Source: Clostridiales bacterium
GTDB taxonomy: Bacteria > Bacillota > Clostridia > UBA1381
Assembly (NCBI GenBank): GCA_029226065.1
Contig: JAQXXM010000039.1
Span: 1 to 38,153 of the forward strand
Reading direction: 5' to 3'
DNA length: 38,153 nucleotides
Both the position numbers and the translations under genes were made by a program. The first letter of the stretch is position 1. Every line of letters begins with the position of its first letter. The notes under the pieces were generated by a model, which was not told the origin of the DNA, did no database searches, and worked only from the letters and a program-made list of their open reading frames with translations. Shown in pieces: positions 32,253 through 38,145 of the stretch.

Positions 32253-32735
32253 ATGAAAAAAATTGTATGTATACAATTGGGTATAATATTAATAGGCATG
32301 ATCGTGTTTTTTATTACAAATCCAAGTGTTTATAATAAAAATTATTGGAAAGACATAGGGTTAGGTGAATCACATCTGTATGCAGATGTGATCCGAGAAT
32401 TTGGTGAGCCAACAGAAATTCTACACATAAGTGATGCTGAGAGCGTTGTTAGGTACGATGGTGTTTCGTTTGTTTGGTATAATGCAGACTTAAATGGCAT
32501 TTTCGTTTGTAGCGAAATCACTTCGAGTAAAATATCATTTGGTAAAAAAAACGTCAGTGTTGGTATGAGTAAACAAGAAATCCAAAGAATTTATAATAGA
32601 GGATTTATAAAGCCAATCAAAGATTTATCAAATAATGAATTAGGGTATATTGATGGGACAGATGACACTTGGGTATATTTTAAGTTTAATGATAAAGATG
32701 TTGTTAACAAAATAGTTTTGGCACATGGAGTATGA
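32253..32735 (+). CDS. Small membrane-anchored protein, probable orphan immunity protein
   Basis: A 160-residue protein with one N-terminal hydrophobic helix (about residues 4-22) and an outward soluble domain. Two stretches, GLGESHLYADVIREFGEP (near residue 36) and VGMSKQEIQRIYNRGF (near residue 104), resemble the paired helical units of BamE/SmpA-like small domains (inference from pattern only). Its TGA overlaps the ATG of RHS module 1 (ATGA). Its position, size and anchor match the other three presumed immunity proteins of the array, but no toxin precedes it; the gene to its left is a housekeeping gene on the other strand. AAGGA lies 9 nt before ATG 32253. Function is not shown. Confidence 0.65.
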   Translation: MKKIVCIQLGIILIGMIVFFITNPSVYNKNYWKDIGLGESHLYADVIREFGEPTEILHISDAESVVRYDGVSFVWYNADLNGIFVCSEITSSKISFGKKNVSVGMSKQEIQRIYNRGFIKPIKDLSNNELGYIDGTDDTWVYFKFNDKDVVNKIVLAHGV

Positions 32736-34123
32736 AAACAATAAAAGTAACAACGGGAATGACAATCAGTGTATCTGATACATACAGATATGATCTGAGA
32801 GGCAACAGGACATCAAAGACAGGAATAGGTACAACAACACAATATATATATGACTTAAACAACCGACTGCTGAGTACAACAGAGGAGACAGCTGACACAA
32901 GCAGAAAGACTCGGTATTACTATGATAAAAACGGAAATACCATCTCGAAGGCAACAACGGAAGTCGCACCAAGCACTGGAGATACTCAATACACAATATC
33001 AGATACTGCCAACAGCTATGTAACATTCTATGACTACAACAGGTATAACCGTCTTACAAGTGCAGAAACAGACGGAGTAGTGTCAAGGTATACATATAAC
33101 GCAGACAATCTGAGAGCAACAAAGACCGTAGGAAATATCACAACTGAATATGTGTGGGACGGACAAAACCTTGCAGCAGAGACAAAGCAAGGTACAACCG
33201 AGGCCTATACATACGATATGACGGGTGTGCATACGAAAAAACAGGAAGACGAAGTAACGTCATATCTCAAGGACTATCACGGTAACATGATAGGCACCGC
33301 CGATAATACAGGGAGACTTGACTATGACGCATACGGCAATCAACTTCAAGGCGACGCCCCTGACCCATTCGGCTACTGCGGGGAATATTACGACAGTGAA
33401 ACAGGGTTAATCTATCTGCGTGCGAGATATTATGACCCAACCACAGGCAGATTTATCAATGAAGACCCAATCAAGGACGGTTTGAACTGGTATATGTATT
33501 GCGAGGGGAATCCAGTGATGTTTGTGGATCCAAGTGGATTATATGATCGCAATGCTGCGGTAAATTACGCATTAAAATATTCTGTTTTTAAAAATACTAA
33601 TCCATGGGAACAGACATTTGATGATAAAAAACCACCAGTAAGATTTTCTATGGACTGTACTAACTTTGTTTCATTCTGTTTAAAGGCGGGTGACTTACAT
33701 CAATCAGACGATTGGTATTATAATTGGACATGTGGTGGAGGAAATTATGTATGGGGCAGTTATTCAGCAACATGGACAAATTCAGAAGAACAATTTAAAG
33801 CATTTACAAATTGTACAGGAAAGTTTCCAAACTCCAGCTATGCTAATGGAGTAGCAATATGTATTCATGAATCAAAATGGATTCCAGTTACTATTAAAGA
33901 ATATGGGATACAAAAAGGTGATTTACTGTATTTTTTAAATAATAAAACATTGAAAATGGAACATACAGCGATGATTGTATCAGTTGACAATGGTGTCATA
34001 ATATATGCACAGCATGATATAGACAAAAATGATGGTAATCTAAATGAATATTTAGATAAAAATGGTGATGATCCAAACCAATTTAATTATGTGTTTGTGG
34101 TAAGGATTGATGATGATGCATAA
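32732..34123 (+). CDS. RHS module 1: RHS core tip with Amidase_6-like C-terminal domain
   Basis: A 463-residue protein made of several YD repeats (YRYDLRGNRT, YIYDLNNRLL, YYYDKNGNTI, YDYNRYNRLT), then the RHS-associated core (GYCGEYYDSETGLIYLRARY, about residue 217) ending DPSGLYD near residue 270. The rest is variable: YDRNAAVNYALKY, then catalytic-like C309 in MDCTNFVSFCL and H411 in MEHTAMIVS, a layout of the Amidase_6 (PF12671) NlpC/P60-like fold that cuts peptidoglycan peptides. There is no signal peptide and no large RHS shell, so this is a tip without its barrel. It starts inside the stop of the upstream gene. Probably a toxin cassette rather than a working secreted protein. Confidence 0.85.
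   Translation: MKTIKVTTGMTISVSDTYRYDLRGNRTSKTGIGTTTQYIYDLNNRLLSTTEETADTSRKTRYYYDKNGNTISKATTEVAPSTGDTQYTISDTANSYVTFYDYNRYNRLTSAETDGVVSRYTYNADNLRATKTVGNITTEYVWDGQNLAAETKQGTTEAYTYDMTGVHTKKQEDEVTSYLKDYHGNMIGTADNTGRLDYDAYGNQLQGDAPDPFGYCGEYYDSETGLIYLRARYYDPTTGRFINEDPIKDGLNWYMYCEGNPVMFVDPSGLYDRNAAVNYALKYSVFKNTNPWEQTFDDKKPPVRFSMDCTNFVSFCLKAGDLHQSDDWYYNWTCGGGNYVWGSYSATWTNSEEQFKAFTNCTGKFPNSSYANGVAICIHESKWIPVTIKEYGIQKGDLLYFLNNKTLKMEHTAMIVSVDNGVIIYAQHDIDKNDGNLNEYLDKNGDDPNQFNYVFVVRIDDDA
32948..33415 (+). repeat. RHS repeat copy A (aligned to copy C)
   Basis: This 468-bp segment aligns without gaps to 36569-37036, with about 20 mismatches counted by eye. Positions 33218-33389 also align to 35178-35349. 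Identity ends within the core, just before the variable toxin parts. Confidence 0.88.
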
Positions 34124-34727
34124 TAGTAGTTTTATGAAAAAAATATATTTTATAGCAATTATTATATTTTTAGTAAGTGCATTAGGTGTTATATGCATAG
34201 ATAAATTCTTAGATGGTATATGTCCTGATAATATAAGCAATATAGAATTGACAGTTGAAAAAGTGGATATACGAGATATTAATTCATATGATAATATATT
34301 CCATTTATATGGATGGGATGAAACATTATTAAAACAAGTTAGAAACGATTCTGATCATTATGTGATAGTATCCGTTCATTATCATATAAGGAACAAGTCG
34401 GATACTCTGACAATGAAGGATGTACGATTTATTCCTAAATTTGATAGTGAATTGAACGATAGCTTAAAAATGTATAATGTTGATAATGGAACTTACTATA
34501 CATATATAGAACCTTTGTCGGATAGTGGAATGACACAGGATTTATTATTTAAAATAAAAGATGATAAGAACGAAGTTTTAAATAAATTGAAAAACCAACA
34601 AGTTGACATGACATATTTTACCGGATGTTTATCTTCTAGTCATGGGCGAGGATTATATGGAATAGGAAAGCACCATTATAAGTTTGAAATTGGAGATTTT
34701 ATGCAAGTAGGGCGATATGAGGAGTAA
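34113..34727 (+). CDS. Membrane-anchored protein, presumed immunity partner of module 1
   Basis: About 204 residues, unrecognised. An N-terminal helix (KKIYFIAIIIFLVSALGVI) predicts anchoring with a soluble outer domain, rich in aspartate and tyrosine. It overlaps the end of RHS module 1 and lies right after the amidase-like domain, the usual place for an immunity protein against a wall-acting toxin. Several ATGs crowd the start (34110, 34113, 34116, 34134); AAGGA at 34102-34106 suits 34113 or 34116. Base composition is more AT-rich than the RHS core, as is common for such genes. Confidence 0.65.
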   Translation: MMHNSSFMKKIYFIAIIIFLVSALGVICIDKFLDGICPDNISNIELTVEKVDIRDINSYDNIFHLYGWDETLLKQVRNDSDHYVIVSVHYHIRNKSDTLTMKDVRFIPKFDSELNDSLKMYNVDNGTYYTYIEPLSDSGMTQDLLFKIKDDKNEVLNKLKNQQVDMTYFTGCLSSSHGRGLYGIGKHHYKFEIGDFMQVGRYEE

Positions 34728-34860
34728 ACCGAACGATATTCAAGTAGAAATATGCAACTATGGGCGAACCTTATTTTACAAATTCTACTGGACACAAAAG
34801 ATCGGCGATGCTAAAATGGAGATAAGAAGGAGTAACACCTCAAACTATACGCAAAACTAT

Positions 34861-35166
34861 TATGATACCGTAGGTAACATATACGGTTTTCTCGGAATTT
34901 GTGCCGTCTGACAATGACTCTGTATTAAGTTCACAAAGACCTCTGTATGTAAAATTAAATGTATTTCCGTTACGGTCTGTGTTGTGAGTAATAACCCTGT
35001 TGTTTGCTCATGCGTGTTTGTTTCCGTCTGATTCAATGCATCGGTTGTTGTTGATAGTCGGTTTGCATAATCATACGTGTAATTTGTGACAGCATAGTCG
35101 GCACCTGATTCTGTTACATAATCAAATCCGTTTATTGTTAGCGGTGATGTTAGGCCTGCATATACA
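34861..35166 (-). pseudogene. Inverted, frameshifted RHS fragment
   Basis: Read on the minus strand this encodes RHS-type repeats: DYAVTNYTYDYANRLSTTTD and TTGLLLTT in one frame, then, after a frameshift near TTGLLLTT, DRNGNTFNFTYRGLCELNTE in another. The segment is opposite to all neighbouring RHS modules and lies immediately before module 2. The bases between 34728 and 34860 hold a short frame of no recognisable content. It is a dead scrap left by rearrangement. Confidence 0.75.
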
Positions 35167-35177
35167 CACAATAGGTT

Positions 35178-35349
35178 ATGACAGGCGTGCATACGAAAAA
35201 ACAGGGAGACGAAGCAACGTCATATCTCAAGGACTATCACGGTAACGTCATAGGCACCACCGACAGCACAGGGAGACTTGACTATGACGCATACGGCAAT
35301 CAACTTCAAGGCGATGCTCCTGACCCATTCGGCTACTGCGGGGAATATC
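35178..35349 (+). repeat. RHS repeat copy B
   Basis: 172 bp aligned without gaps to 33218-33389 of copy A. It is nearer in sequence to copy C (GGAGACGAAGCAACG and ACCACCGACAGCACA are shared with C, not A). Confidence 0.85.
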
Positions 35350-36134
35350 AGGATTTGTGCAGTGGACTCATTTACCTACGAAATAGGTACTATGATCCAA
35401 GTATGGGAAGATTTATTACCGAAGATCCAGCAAAGGATGGGACAAACTGGTATGTGTATTGTAATAACAATCCTATAAATTATGTAGATCCGTTGGGATT
35501 AGATTCATTTATTATATATGATAACAATGCTGATAGTGGTGATGGTAAGCATACTATGGCAGATGAGGCTGAAATACGAAAAAAACAATTAGAAAAAACA
35601 TGGGGTACTAATGTACAAGTATTTGGCGTTAGTAGCGCATGGGAATTTAAGGAAGTATGGAATAAGCGAGTAGGATATGATTTGGATGGATATGAAGTAT
35701 CTATAGAAGAGGTAGTTATAGTTGCCCATGGTAGTATCACCGGAGATAAAGATGATGGATCTGCACAAGGCTATTTCTATTTTGAAGATGGAGGTGGTGG
35801 TATATATGCAAAGGATGGGAACTATACTGTTAATGATCTGAATTCGAAACATATGGAATGGTTGACTTTTAGCACATGTAATAGTGGGAATCCTGACGTA
35901 TATAATTTGGCATATGCATTTAAGTTGCGTATGACAATTAATCAATATATAGTTGCATGGGATGGAGGAACGATATTTGATTATTCTACGGGTGAATTAC
36001 TCAGAGGAGGATATAATTCTGGACATTGGGCAAAAGATATTATTGGTCAACATGCTTGGTATAAGTATGTAGATAAAACATGGTATGGAAAACCTAAGAG
36101 AAATAGAATTGGCTATAGGCAAATTAAGGGGTAA
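35178..36134 (+). CDS. RHS module 2: RHS core tip with possible clan CD (caspase-like) C-terminal domain
   Basis: A 318-residue tip. It opens TGVHTKKQGDEATSYLKDYHG, nearly identical to module 1, and has the core GYCGEYQDLCSGLIYLRNRY, ending NPINYVDPLGLDS (about residue 110). The variable part has VVIVAHGS (H184) and LTFSTCNSG (C234), each after a predicted beta strand and about 50 residues apart. A strand-His-Gly then strand-Cys pattern is seen in clan CD cysteine peptidases (caspase, CHAT, C80-like). This is an inference from motif order. ATG 35178 has no ribosome binding site, and the segment before it is the inverted scrap, so the frame is probably silent unless recombined. Confidence 0.75.
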   Translation: MTGVHTKKQGDEATSYLKDYHGNVIGTTDSTGRLDYDAYGNQLQGDAPDPFGYCGEYQDLCSGLIYLRNRYYDPSMGRFITEDPAKDGTNWYVYCNNNPINYVDPLGLDSFIIYDNNADSGDGKHTMADEAEIRKKQLEKTWGTNVQVFGVSSAWEFKEVWNKRVGYDLDGYEVSIEEVVIVAHGSITGDKDDGSAQGYFYFEDGGGGIYAKDGNYTVNDLNSKHMEWLTFSTCNSGNPDVYNLAYAFKLRMTINQYIVAWDGGTIFDYSTGELLRGGYNSGHWAKDIIGQHAWYKYVDKTWYGKPKRNRIGYRQIKG

Positions 36135-36138
36135 TTCA

Positions 36139-36552
36139 ATGAAAAGAATATGTAAATTATTAATTATTATATGTACAATATGTTTCATGGCTATAGTTTT
36201 GTCGAATTGTTTTTCTCACTATGAGAGTTTTAATTATTCAGAAATAAAAGGAATACAATATATTCAGTATTTGGGAGAATATGAAGTCAAAGAATATGTA
36301 GATTATGAAGATATAAAAAACGTATCTCAAAAACTACAGAAATTAAGATTTTATCCATCCAAAAACCAAAAATTGCAAGAATCCCCCACAGCTTCGCTCT
36401 ACATATTATATATGAATGGTTCTAAAAAAATAGTTAAAATTGCAGGAATGATGGCTCTGATTAAAAATGTTACAAGTAATAATGGGACATCTGAGGTAAA
36501 TGAAAGCATTTATTACATAAATCCAATAAGTATTAAAGCAATATTTCAATAA
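36139..36552 (+). CDS. Possible lipoprotein, presumed immunity partner of module 2
   Basis: A 137-residue unrecognised protein. The N-terminus MKRICKLLIIICTICFMAIV is a signal-like helix that leads into LSNC, an imperfect lipobox (N at -1 is unusual), so it is a lipoprotein or an anchored protein. AAGGGG lies 7 nt before ATG 36139. It starts 4 bp after module 2 and fits the immunity position for an extracellular or surface-acting toxin. AT-rich, like the other presumed immunity genes. Confidence 0.6.
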   Translation: MKRICKLLIIICTICFMAIVLSNCFSHYESFNYSEIKGIQYIQYLGEYEVKEYVDYEDIKNVSQKLQKLRFYPSKNQKLQESPTASLYILYMNGSKKIVKIAGMMALIKNVTSNNGTSEVNESIYYINPISIKAIFQ

Positions 36553-36568
36553 TATAAAATTATTATAT

Positions 36569-37036
36569 AAGGCAACAACGGAAGTTGCACCAAGCACTGG
36601 AGATACTCAATACACAATATCAGATACTGCCAACAGCTATGTAACATTCTATGACTACAACAGGTATAACCGTCTTACAAGTGCAGAAACAGACGGAGTA
36701 GTGTCTGAGTATACATATAACGCAGACAATCTGAGAGCAACAAAGACCGTAGGAAATGTCACAACTGAATATGTGTGGGATGGACAAAACCTTGCAGCAG
36801 AGACAAAGCAAGGTACAACTGAGGCCTATACATACGATATGACGGGTGTGCATACGAAAAAACAGGGAGACGAAGCAACGTCATATCTCAAGGACTATCA
36901 CGGTAACGTCATAGGCACCACCGACAGCACAGGCAGACTTGACTATGACGCATACGGCAATCAACTTCAAGGCGATGCTCCTGACCCATTCGGATACTGC
37001 GGGGAGTATTACGACAGTGAAACAGGGTTAATCTAT
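36569..37036 (+). repeat. RHS repeat copy C
   Basis: 468 bp aligned without gaps to copy A (32948-33415). The copy begins abruptly 17 bp after the preceding gene's stop codon, without a start codon, so its left edge looks like a recombination or duplication joint. Confidence 0.88.
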
Positions 37037-37777
37037 TTAAGAAATCGTTATTATGACCCTGTAACTTCACGCATGCTTTCGGAAGATACGCACTGGAATC
37101 CGGGAAATATGATTTATGGTGATAATGGAAACCATGGCACTCCTAATATTGATGCAATTATGCAAAGTAGTAATTTATATGTCTATTGCATGAATGACCC
37201 CATAAATTATACTGATTCTACAGGACATCGTTCTAAAAAAGATGCCGATAAGATTATAAAAAATAATGCACAGAACATAAAAGATGCAGCATCTGAGTTT
37301 GGTGTAAATCCTGCTATATTAGCAGCAACTATCTATGCCGAACAAAGATTAAACGTTAATTGGAAAGATGATTTTGTTGATCCACTTGCTTCAGATGTAT
37401 TAGATGTATCTCTTGGTGTAGGGCAAATTAGAATTTCTACAGCAATGAAATTAGAAGACAAGGGATATATGCCTAAAACTAAATATTATGAATGGCATAC
37501 AAATAATTCTGTGGAAAATCGTAGAGCAGGTGTTGCTATAAATTTGCAAAACGATAAAACCAATATTAGGTATGCAGCTGCATACTTATCATATATTCAG
37601 GATTTGTGGAAGTCGGAATATCCTGAAATTGATGGAAGAACAGCTATTTTAGCTACACTTTATAACATTGGGGAATATGGCTCACATGGACCAAATTCTA
37701 GTCCTAAAAGTAGACCATTTGGAGATTTTGCAAAAGATAATTACTATTATATGCAAGAATTACTTGGATTAAAATAA
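36569..37777 (+). CDS. RHS module 3: 5'-truncated RHS tip with lysozyme-like C-terminal domain
   Basis: An open frame continuous with the RHS core of module 1 but lacking a start: the homology begins mid-repeat at 36569, and the first in-frame GTG (36701) is within the repeat with no ribosome binding site. The core reads GYCGEYYDSETGLIYLRNRY and ends INYTDSTGHRSKK. The variable domain has FGVNPAILAATIYAEQRLN, with a glutamate (codon 37340-37342) where lytic transglycosylases place theirs, then SLGVGQIRISTAMKLED and AAAYLSYIQDLW. This matches a goose-lysozyme/transglycosylase-like fold, expected to cut peptidoglycan glycan strands. Family assignment is inferred. Probably silent until joined to an RHS shell. 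Confidence 0.78.
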   Translation, partial: KATTEVAPSTGDTQYTISDTANSYVTFYDYNRYNRLTSAETDGVVSEYTYNADNLRATKTVGNVTTEYVWDGQNLAAETKQGTTEAYTYDMTGVHTKKQGDEATSYLKDYHGNVIGTTDSTGRLDYDAYGNQLQGDAPDPFGYCGEYYDSETGLIYLRNRYYDPVTSRMLSEDTHWNPGNMIYGDNGNHGTPNIDAIMQSSNLYVYCMNDPINYTDSTGHRSKKDADKIIKNNAQNIKDAASEFGVNPAILAATIYAEQRLNVNWKDDFVDPLASDVLDVSLGVGQIRISTAMKLEDKGYMPKTKYYEWHTNNSVENRRAGVAINLQNDKTNIRYAAAYLSYIQDLWKSEYPEIDGRTAILATLYNIGEYGSHGPNSSPKSRPFGDFAKDNYYYMQELLGLK

Positions 37778-37791
37778 GGGAGGATACTATA

Positions 37792-38145
37792 ATGACAAAG
37801 CATAGAAAAACTATTGTTATTTTATTCCCTATATTGTGTTTTATTGTAATATGGGTGAGTTCATTAGTTAAGTGTGAAATTCTTACAGCATTGTATTATG
37901 ATAATTTTATTACATTTGAAGAAGTAAGTGAAGCTGAAACATTTAAAATTCTTTCATGTGACGATTATTCTGCCAGAATTTATTGTGTAACAACTAATTT
38001 TGAAAGTGGAAGTATTCATGATTTTACAAAGGAAAACAATGAATGGAAATACGACAAATGGGAAGATGAAGGTTGGTCAGCTTCTGGAAATGCTGATAGA
38101 GTGATTTGGCCATATTGGTGGCATGTCGTATATTTTTGGTTCTAA
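37792..38145 (+). CDS. Membrane-anchored protein, presumed immunity partner of module 3
   Basis: A 117-residue unrecognised protein. After THRKT-like basic residues, one helix (IVILFPILCFIVIWVSSLV, about residues 8-26) predicts an anchor; the rest is soluble, ending in a tryptophan-rich WPYWWHVVYFWF. GGGAGG lies 8-9 nt before ATG 37792, so unlike modules 2 and 3 themselves this gene has a good start. It begins 14 bp after the lysozyme-like module and fits the immunity place. The window ends 8 bases after the stop. Confidence 0.65.
   Translation: MTKHRKTIVILFPILCFIVIWVSSLVKCEILTALYYDNFITFEEVSEAETFKILSCDDYSARIYCVTTNFESGSIHDFTKENNEWKYDKWEDEGWSASGNADRVIWPYWWHVVYFWF

What the first reader, a model, noticed from the sequence alone, without database searches (positions are those of the whole stretch)
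35511..36134. Possible clan CD (caspase/CHAT-like) domain as an RHS payload
VVIVAHGS (H184) and LTFSTCNSG (C234) follow two predicted strands with spacing expected of a His-Gly/Cys dyad in clan CD peptidases. A self-cleaving or target-cutting peptidase of this fold as the payload of an RHS tip would be unusual. I do not recognise the domain as any named toxin.
Basis: inference. Interest (0 to 1): 0.65.

Follow-up and report, generated by a model that had tools for sequence, protein, structure and literature searches.

The report
Caspase-like protease toxin in RHS cassette
A gut-type Clostridia genome carries a spare weapon cassette whose business end is predicted to be a caspase-like protein-cutting toxin, sitting next to a membrane-anchored protein that probably shields the owner; it belongs to an unannotated toxin family that turns up on several different bacterial delivery proteins.

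Summary
In detail: ORF 35178-36134 has a VVIVAHGS...LTFSTCNSG pair (H184, C234) in a ~211-aa domain after an RHS core. No Pfam, NCBIfam or PDB-sequence match. Fourteen members from Clostridia and other Bacillota, mostly 23-42% identical to it, keep H184, C234 and D262-G263 without exception. AlphaFold2 (pLDDT 87, pTM 0.87) puts His and Cys directly after two core strands; the best structural match is Tce1, a putative cysteine-protease effector of the Pseudomonas H3-T6SS (Z 13.0), then gingipain, MARTX CPD, CHAT and caspases. So the clan CD reading is supported. The domain is always C-terminal, on RHS, VgrG plus choline-binding repeats, or PG-binding plus CHAP proteins, and is usually followed by a small gene with a hydrophobic N-terminus (14 of 16, against 3 of 28 control genes). 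In the window this is a homologue of DUF5301-like lipoproteins. Best explanation: a terminal protease toxin acting outside the cytoplasm, blocked by an exported immunity protein. Here it is an orphan cassette lacking its own signal sequence. Caspase-like C-terminal toxins were described in 2012, so this is a new variant of a known kind; catalysis and target are untested.

The parts
35178..36134 (+). ORF of 318 aa: truncated RHS core plus C-terminal caspase-like payload
35171..35353 (+). 183-nt RHS-core repeat shared with 33211-33393 (91%) and 36832-37014 (95%); 5' border of the cassette
35178..35498 (+). RHS-associated core with R70, D83 and D104 in the pattern of the RHS aspartyl autoprotease, ending ...NYVDPLG
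   Evidence: pattern compared with PMC13018210
35499..36131 (+). payload domain, clan CD (caspase-like) fold by AlphaFold2
35727..35729 (+). codon of H184 (H77 of the domain), predicted catalytic His
35877..35879 (+). codon of C234 (C127 of the domain), predicted nucleophile
35961..35963 (+). codon of D262 (D155 of the domain) of the invariant Asp-Gly; role unknown
36139..36552 (+). immunity candidate, 137 aa: N-terminal membrane helix plus DUF5301-like domain; starts 5 bases after the toxin stop, behind AGGGG
32732..34123 (+). neighbouring RHS cassette with Amidase_6 payload
34107..34727 (+). membrane-anchored immunity candidate of the Amidase_6 cassette; L005:4342-4974 follows the same kind of payload
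36701..37777 (+). next RHS cassette, lysozyme/transglycosylase-like payload (sub-threshold Tse3 catalytic match, E 2.7e-4)
37792..38145 (+). immunity candidate of that cassette, hydrophobic N-terminus

Best explanation
The payload is a clan CD (caspase-like) cysteine peptidase domain, the toxin of an RHS toxin-immunity cassette. Shown by computation: the fold, the placing of His and Cys in the chain, their invariance, the C-terminal position on several kinds of delivery protein, and the linkage to a small exported or membrane-anchored gene, homologous within most of the window-like subfamily. Inferred: when the cassette is joined to a complete RHS protein by recombination at the repeated core, the RHS shell delivers the domain and its own autoprotease frees it at ...DPLG|L; C234, activated by H184, then cuts a protein outside the cytoplasm of a neighbouring Gram-positive cell; the producer and its kin are protected by the membrane-anchored DUF5301-like protein, which binds the toxin at the outer face of the membrane. 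In the window the cassette is an orphan without a signal sequence, so it is probably a reserve.
For: AF2 pLDDT 87.1, pTM 0.87. VIA-align: Tce1 Z 13.0 (rmsd 2.9, 153 residues), RgpB gingipain 10.5, V. cholerae MARTX CPD 10.3, SAVED-CHAT 9.8, caspases and metacaspase 9.0-9.5; the Foldseek list is almost all CHAT and caspases, best E 2e-3. H, C, D, G invariant in 14 members. Scaffolds: full RHS with signal peptide (L021, L019), RHS with WXG100-like N-terminus (L020), VgrG/GPD-like spike with 24 choline-binding stretches (L015), 3x PG_binding_1 + CHAP (L004). Downstream genes with hydrophobic N-terminus 14 of 16 against 3 of 28, Fisher p 6e-7. Immunity homology across scaffolds: without the membrane helix the profile of the window group finds the Clostridium one at 1.9e-4; the Clostridium+Roseburia profile, helix kept, finds the window one at 4e-4. 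Immunity model: membrane helix plus a/b domain like 2mct (Z 9.4) and a C. perfringens lipoprotein 4r7r (Z 7.7). Precedent for this topology: TipC against TelC (PMC6193138).
Against: No activity data. No clan CD family matches by sequence at threshold; only L019 touches DUF4347 (E 0.009, 16.2 against cut-off 24.6). Foldseek TM-scores to known members are about 0.4. Tce1, the nearest fold, showed no toxicity in E. coli or yeast. L004 and L018 do not have a clear DUF5301-like gene as next neighbour. The site of action is inferred only from the anchor of the immunity protein. The family is rare (a few percent of Clostridia genomes searched), so the model rests on a shallow alignment.
Confidence: 0.62

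Rival explanations
1. A processing peptidase that releases itself or another part of the RHS protein, like the internal caspase-like or C80 domains of larger toxins, and not the toxin.
For: Most caspase-like domains in polymorphic toxins are release peptidases (PMC3482391); the fold resembles the MARTX CPD.
Against: It is the last domain in all members, with nothing after it to release; the RHS core has the Arg/Asp/Asp pattern of its own autoprotease; it comes with a homologous immunity gene.
Confidence: 0.1
2. A clan CD toxin that works in the target's cytoplasm; the exported immunity protein catches it at the surface before entry.
For: Caspases and CHAT proteases are intracellular, and Tce2 is toxic when expressed inside yeast.
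Against: 14 of 16 downstream genes have a hydrophobic N-terminus, in two unrelated immunity families; the neighbouring cassettes carry cell-wall-type enzymes with the same type of immunity; one carrier is a PG-binding/CHAP protein.
Confidence: 0.15
3. A caspase-like fold that is not a protease: inactive, or using the dyad for another reaction or for binding.
For: No activity data; some caspase-like repeats in toxins lack the catalytic residues (PMC3482391); Tce1 showed no effect when expressed.
Against: His and Cys are invariant while most other positions changed; Tce2 C115S loses yeast toxicity in a related fold.
Confidence: 0.1
4. An effector against eukaryotes (gut or rumen cells, fungi), as proposed for Tce2.
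For: Nearest fold match belongs to the H3-T6SS, thought to be mainly anti-eukaryotic.
Against: Tce1 and Tce2 have no obvious immunity gene whereas this family has one; RHS cassette arrays with immunity genes are typical of rivalry between bacteria.
Confidence: 0.05

Closest known systems
Tox-Caspase domains of polymorphic toxins (Zhang et al. 2012, PMC3482391)
   Same: caspase-like fold with H and C, C-terminal-most domain, RHS carriers, predicted toxin
   Different: they list Imm36 (DUF600) and Imm57 as partners; the partner here is an exported DUF5301-like protein without a PF04634 match; this sequence family is in no library searched
Tce1 (PA0256) and Tce2 of P. aeruginosa H3-T6SS (PMC13323088); Tce1 is a DUF4347 protein (PMC8262886)
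   Same: best structural match (Z 13.0, 153 residues), similar His/Cys spacing (186/240 against 184/234)
   Different: Hcp cargo of a Gram-negative, no immunity gene, Tce2 antifungal; no detectable sequence similarity to the window domain
C80 cysteine protease domain of MARTX toxins
   Same: fold (Z 10.3), His-Cys dyad
   Different: internal, autoprocessing, activated by inositol hexakisphosphate (general knowledge); here terminal with immunity gene
TelC/TipC of Streptococcus intermedius (PMC6193138)
   Same: toxin acting outside the membrane with an N-terminally anchored immunity protein that has an outward-facing a/b domain
   Different: TelC is a lipid II phosphatase of the T7SS, unrelated to this domain

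Membership tests
clan CD cysteine peptidases | alpha/beta core with His after one central strand and Cys after the next | tested here: met
   DSSP of the model: strand 69-75 then H77, strand 118-125 then C127; the structural matches listed are clan CD proteins. Measured distance not available.
clan CD cysteine peptidases | invariant His-Cys dyad | tested here: met
   14 of 14 members
clan CD cysteine peptidases | match to a Pfam family of the clan at its cut-off (not required for the clan, which is defined by structure) | tested here: inconclusive
   no match at cut-off; the set forms its own sequence family, so membership rests on the predicted fold
clan CD cysteine peptidases | peptidase activity | not testable with these tools
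   needs a biochemical assay
DUF4347 (PF14252, Tce1) | score above the gathering cut-off | tested here: not met
   only L019, 16.2 against 24.6 bits
Tox-Caspase polymorphic toxins | caspase-like domain as the C-terminal-most domain of a modular toxin | tested here: met
Tox-Caspase polymorphic toxins | Imm36 (DUF600) or Imm57 partner | tested here: inconclusive
   no PF04634 match in the partner genes; Imm57 not tested; partner is not strictly defining
RHS polymorphic toxin cassette | RHS-associated core followed by a variable C-terminus and an immunity gene | tested here: met
   TIGR03696 E 1.8e-23; gene at 36139 with homologues beside the same payload elsewhere
DUF5301 (PF17225) for the immunity protein | score above the gathering cut-off | tested here: inconclusive
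   the Clostridium homologue L015:7049-7459 passes narrowly (23.4 against 23.1); the window protein alone does not match but is homologous to it by profile

The most novel reading that the evidence does not exclude
An undescribed family of Bacillota caspase-like protease toxins that act at the outer face of the target membrane or in its wall, carried by interchangeable delivery proteins (RHS, VgrG-like spikes with choline-binding repeats, wall-binding amidases), and neutralised by a membrane-anchored DUF5301-like inhibitor. This would give a first function to that orphan lipoprotein fold.
Probability: 0.42. Interest if true: 0.66.

Novelty: new variant of a known kind. Interest (0 to 1): 0.5.

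Why it matters
If true, a caspase-like enzyme is used by one Gram-positive bacterium to cut a protein on the surface of another, with a dedicated membrane-tethered inhibitor. It links an orphan family of exported lipoproteins (DUF5301-like, resembling the solved but functionless structures 2mct and 4r7r) to toxin immunity, and gives a small tractable pair for asking what surface protein is essential enough to be the target.

Tried and rejected
Pfam, NCBIfam and PHROGs scans of the payload and its relatives: nothing above a cut-off. PDB sequence searches: nothing meaningful. No relatives in viral contigs or phage records. Two weak first hits were dropped as intact members: L002 is an AraC-type regulator, a chance match, and L003 keeps only the payload's last residues although its immunity gene is intact. 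A DUF4347 profile found no clear member in 119 phylum genomes to compare with. Considered and rejected: a release peptidase, and a chance motif. The tree of 14 domains supports two subfamilies (98/95) but has long branches and cannot order events inside them.

Full report
What is there. The window is contig C39 of a 1.84-Mb Clostridia-type genome assembly. Up to about 32 kb it holds ordinary genes, among them polC, tyrS, mreB and a cation P-type ATPase. From 32.7 kb to the contig end lies a row of three RHS C-terminal cassettes: 32732-34123 with an Amidase_6 payload, 35178-36134 with the payload in question, and 36701-37777 with a lysozyme-like payload; each is followed by a small gene with a hydrophobic N-terminus. 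The cassettes share RHS-core DNA: 183 nt at 91-100% in three copies and 300 nt at 97% in two. The ORF of the finding begins inside the repeat and has no signal sequence. The only other RHS stretch found in the held assembly is a partial one on C60. So the cassette is an orphan, of the sort thought to be swapped into a full RHS gene by recombination (inference from established knowledge of RHS and CDI loci).

The domain. Residues 108-318 match no family or PDB sequence. A tblastn search found relatives on two Clostridia plasmids, and profile searches of genomes found more. Fourteen usable members were aligned: Y7, F50, W54, I69, H77, C127, D155, G156 and G205 (domain numbering) are invariant.

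Fold. AlphaFold2 on eight sequences gave pLDDT 87.1 and pTM 0.87. His follows strand 69-75 and Cys follows strand 118-125. VIA-align ranks Tce1 of the P. aeruginosa H3-T6SS first (Z 13.0, rmsd 2.9, 153 residues), then gingipain RgpB (10.5), MARTX CPD (10.3), SAVED-CHAT (9.8), caspases and a metacaspase (9.0-9.5). Foldseek gives mostly CHAT and caspases, with modest scores (best E 2e-3, TM about 0.4). Tce1's putative dyad is His186/Cys240 (PMC13323088), and Tce1 was earlier annotated as DUF4347 (PMC8262886); the only sub-threshold Pfam hit to a family of this kind in our set is DUF4347. The clan CD assignment therefore rests on fold and on the invariant pair, not on a named-family match. The inter-residue distance was not measured.

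Delivery. The same domain ends proteins of different build: secreted full-length RHS proteins (L021 2052 aa, L019 1774 aa), an RHS protein with a WXG100-like N-terminus (L020), a VgrG/GPD-like spike with about 24 choline-binding stretches preceded by a PAAR-like DUF4280 gene (L015), a separate cassette beside such spikes (L016), and a protein with three PG_binding_1 domains and a CHAP domain (L004). The signal-peptide and WXG100 labels are read from the sequence, not from a dedicated predictor. The domain is always the last one. The RHS cores in front keep the Arg...Asp...Asp pattern ending in DPxG known from RHS autoproteolysis (PMC13018210), so release does not need the payload.

Immunity. 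The gene at 36139-36552 starts 5 bases after the toxin stop, behind AGGGG. Homologues lie beside the payload or its broken remains in Clostridium, Roseburia, Monoglobus and other genomes. Profiles trained on one group find the other (1.9e-4 and 4e-4, search space 1000). One member passes the DUF5301 cut-off narrowly. The model has a membrane helix at 2-23 and an a/b domain like two Clostridia proteins of unknown function, 2mct (Z 9.4) and 4r7r, a putative lipoprotein (Z 7.7). The second subfamily of the toxin (L020, L069, L073) has another family of immunity candidates, also N-terminally anchored. In all, 14 of 16 downstream genes have a hydrophobic N-terminus against 3 of 28 control genes of the window. 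TipC, which protects against TelC from the outer face of the membrane, is a proven case of the same topology (PMC6193138).

Mechanism. Best reading: a terminal cysteine-protease toxin of caspase type that cuts something outside the target's cytoplasm, held off by a tethered inhibitor. Shown by computation: family, fold, dyad conservation, architecture, linkage. Inferred: proteolysis, site of action, inhibition by binding. Unknown: the substrate and the role of the invariant Asp-Gly.

Known or new. Caspase-like domains as C-terminal toxins were described by Zhang et al. in 2012 (PMC3482391), so the idea is not new. This family is unannotated, its immunity partner differs from those listed there, and its membrane-side setting looks distinctive. 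I class it as a new variant of a known kind.

Noticed in passing
window 34860-35192 (-): A fragment of RHS repeats lies in inverted orientation just before the cassette, a trace of rearrangement in the array.
   Followed up: no
L015 (G256:C1:893068-896080): Several paralogues of the immunity gene and a broken payload C-terminus follow the toxin gene, a homogeneous immunity array.
   Followed up: partly
L015:2704-7011: A VgrG/GPD-like spike protein of a Clostridium with about 24 choline-binding stretches between spike and toxin domain, after a DUF4280 PAAR-like gene: an unusual architecture for a Gram-positive.
   Followed up: partly
L020:6333-6800, L069:5505-5972, L070:2660-3340, L073:3594-4091: Second subfamily of the toxin (CNAGHLD...SDGT) is followed by another exported immunity family with a WWDL...VWAFIS-like pattern, no Pfam match.
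   Followed up: partly
L019:2333-3340, L032:5651-7882, L033:5455-7500, L034:597-2828: Secreted RCC1-like repeat proteins lie downstream of divergent members of the toxin family.
   Followed up: no
L033:820-4902: A second caspase-like motif pair (FATHGHNG...NNSCYS) lies upstream of the C-terminal domain in the same surface protein.
   Followed up: no
L005 (Monoglobus plasmid NZ_OY725736.1): An RHS cassette array with the same kind of Amidase_6 cassette and a broken copy of this payload, next to a recombinase-family gene and a type 44 toxin.
   Followed up: partly
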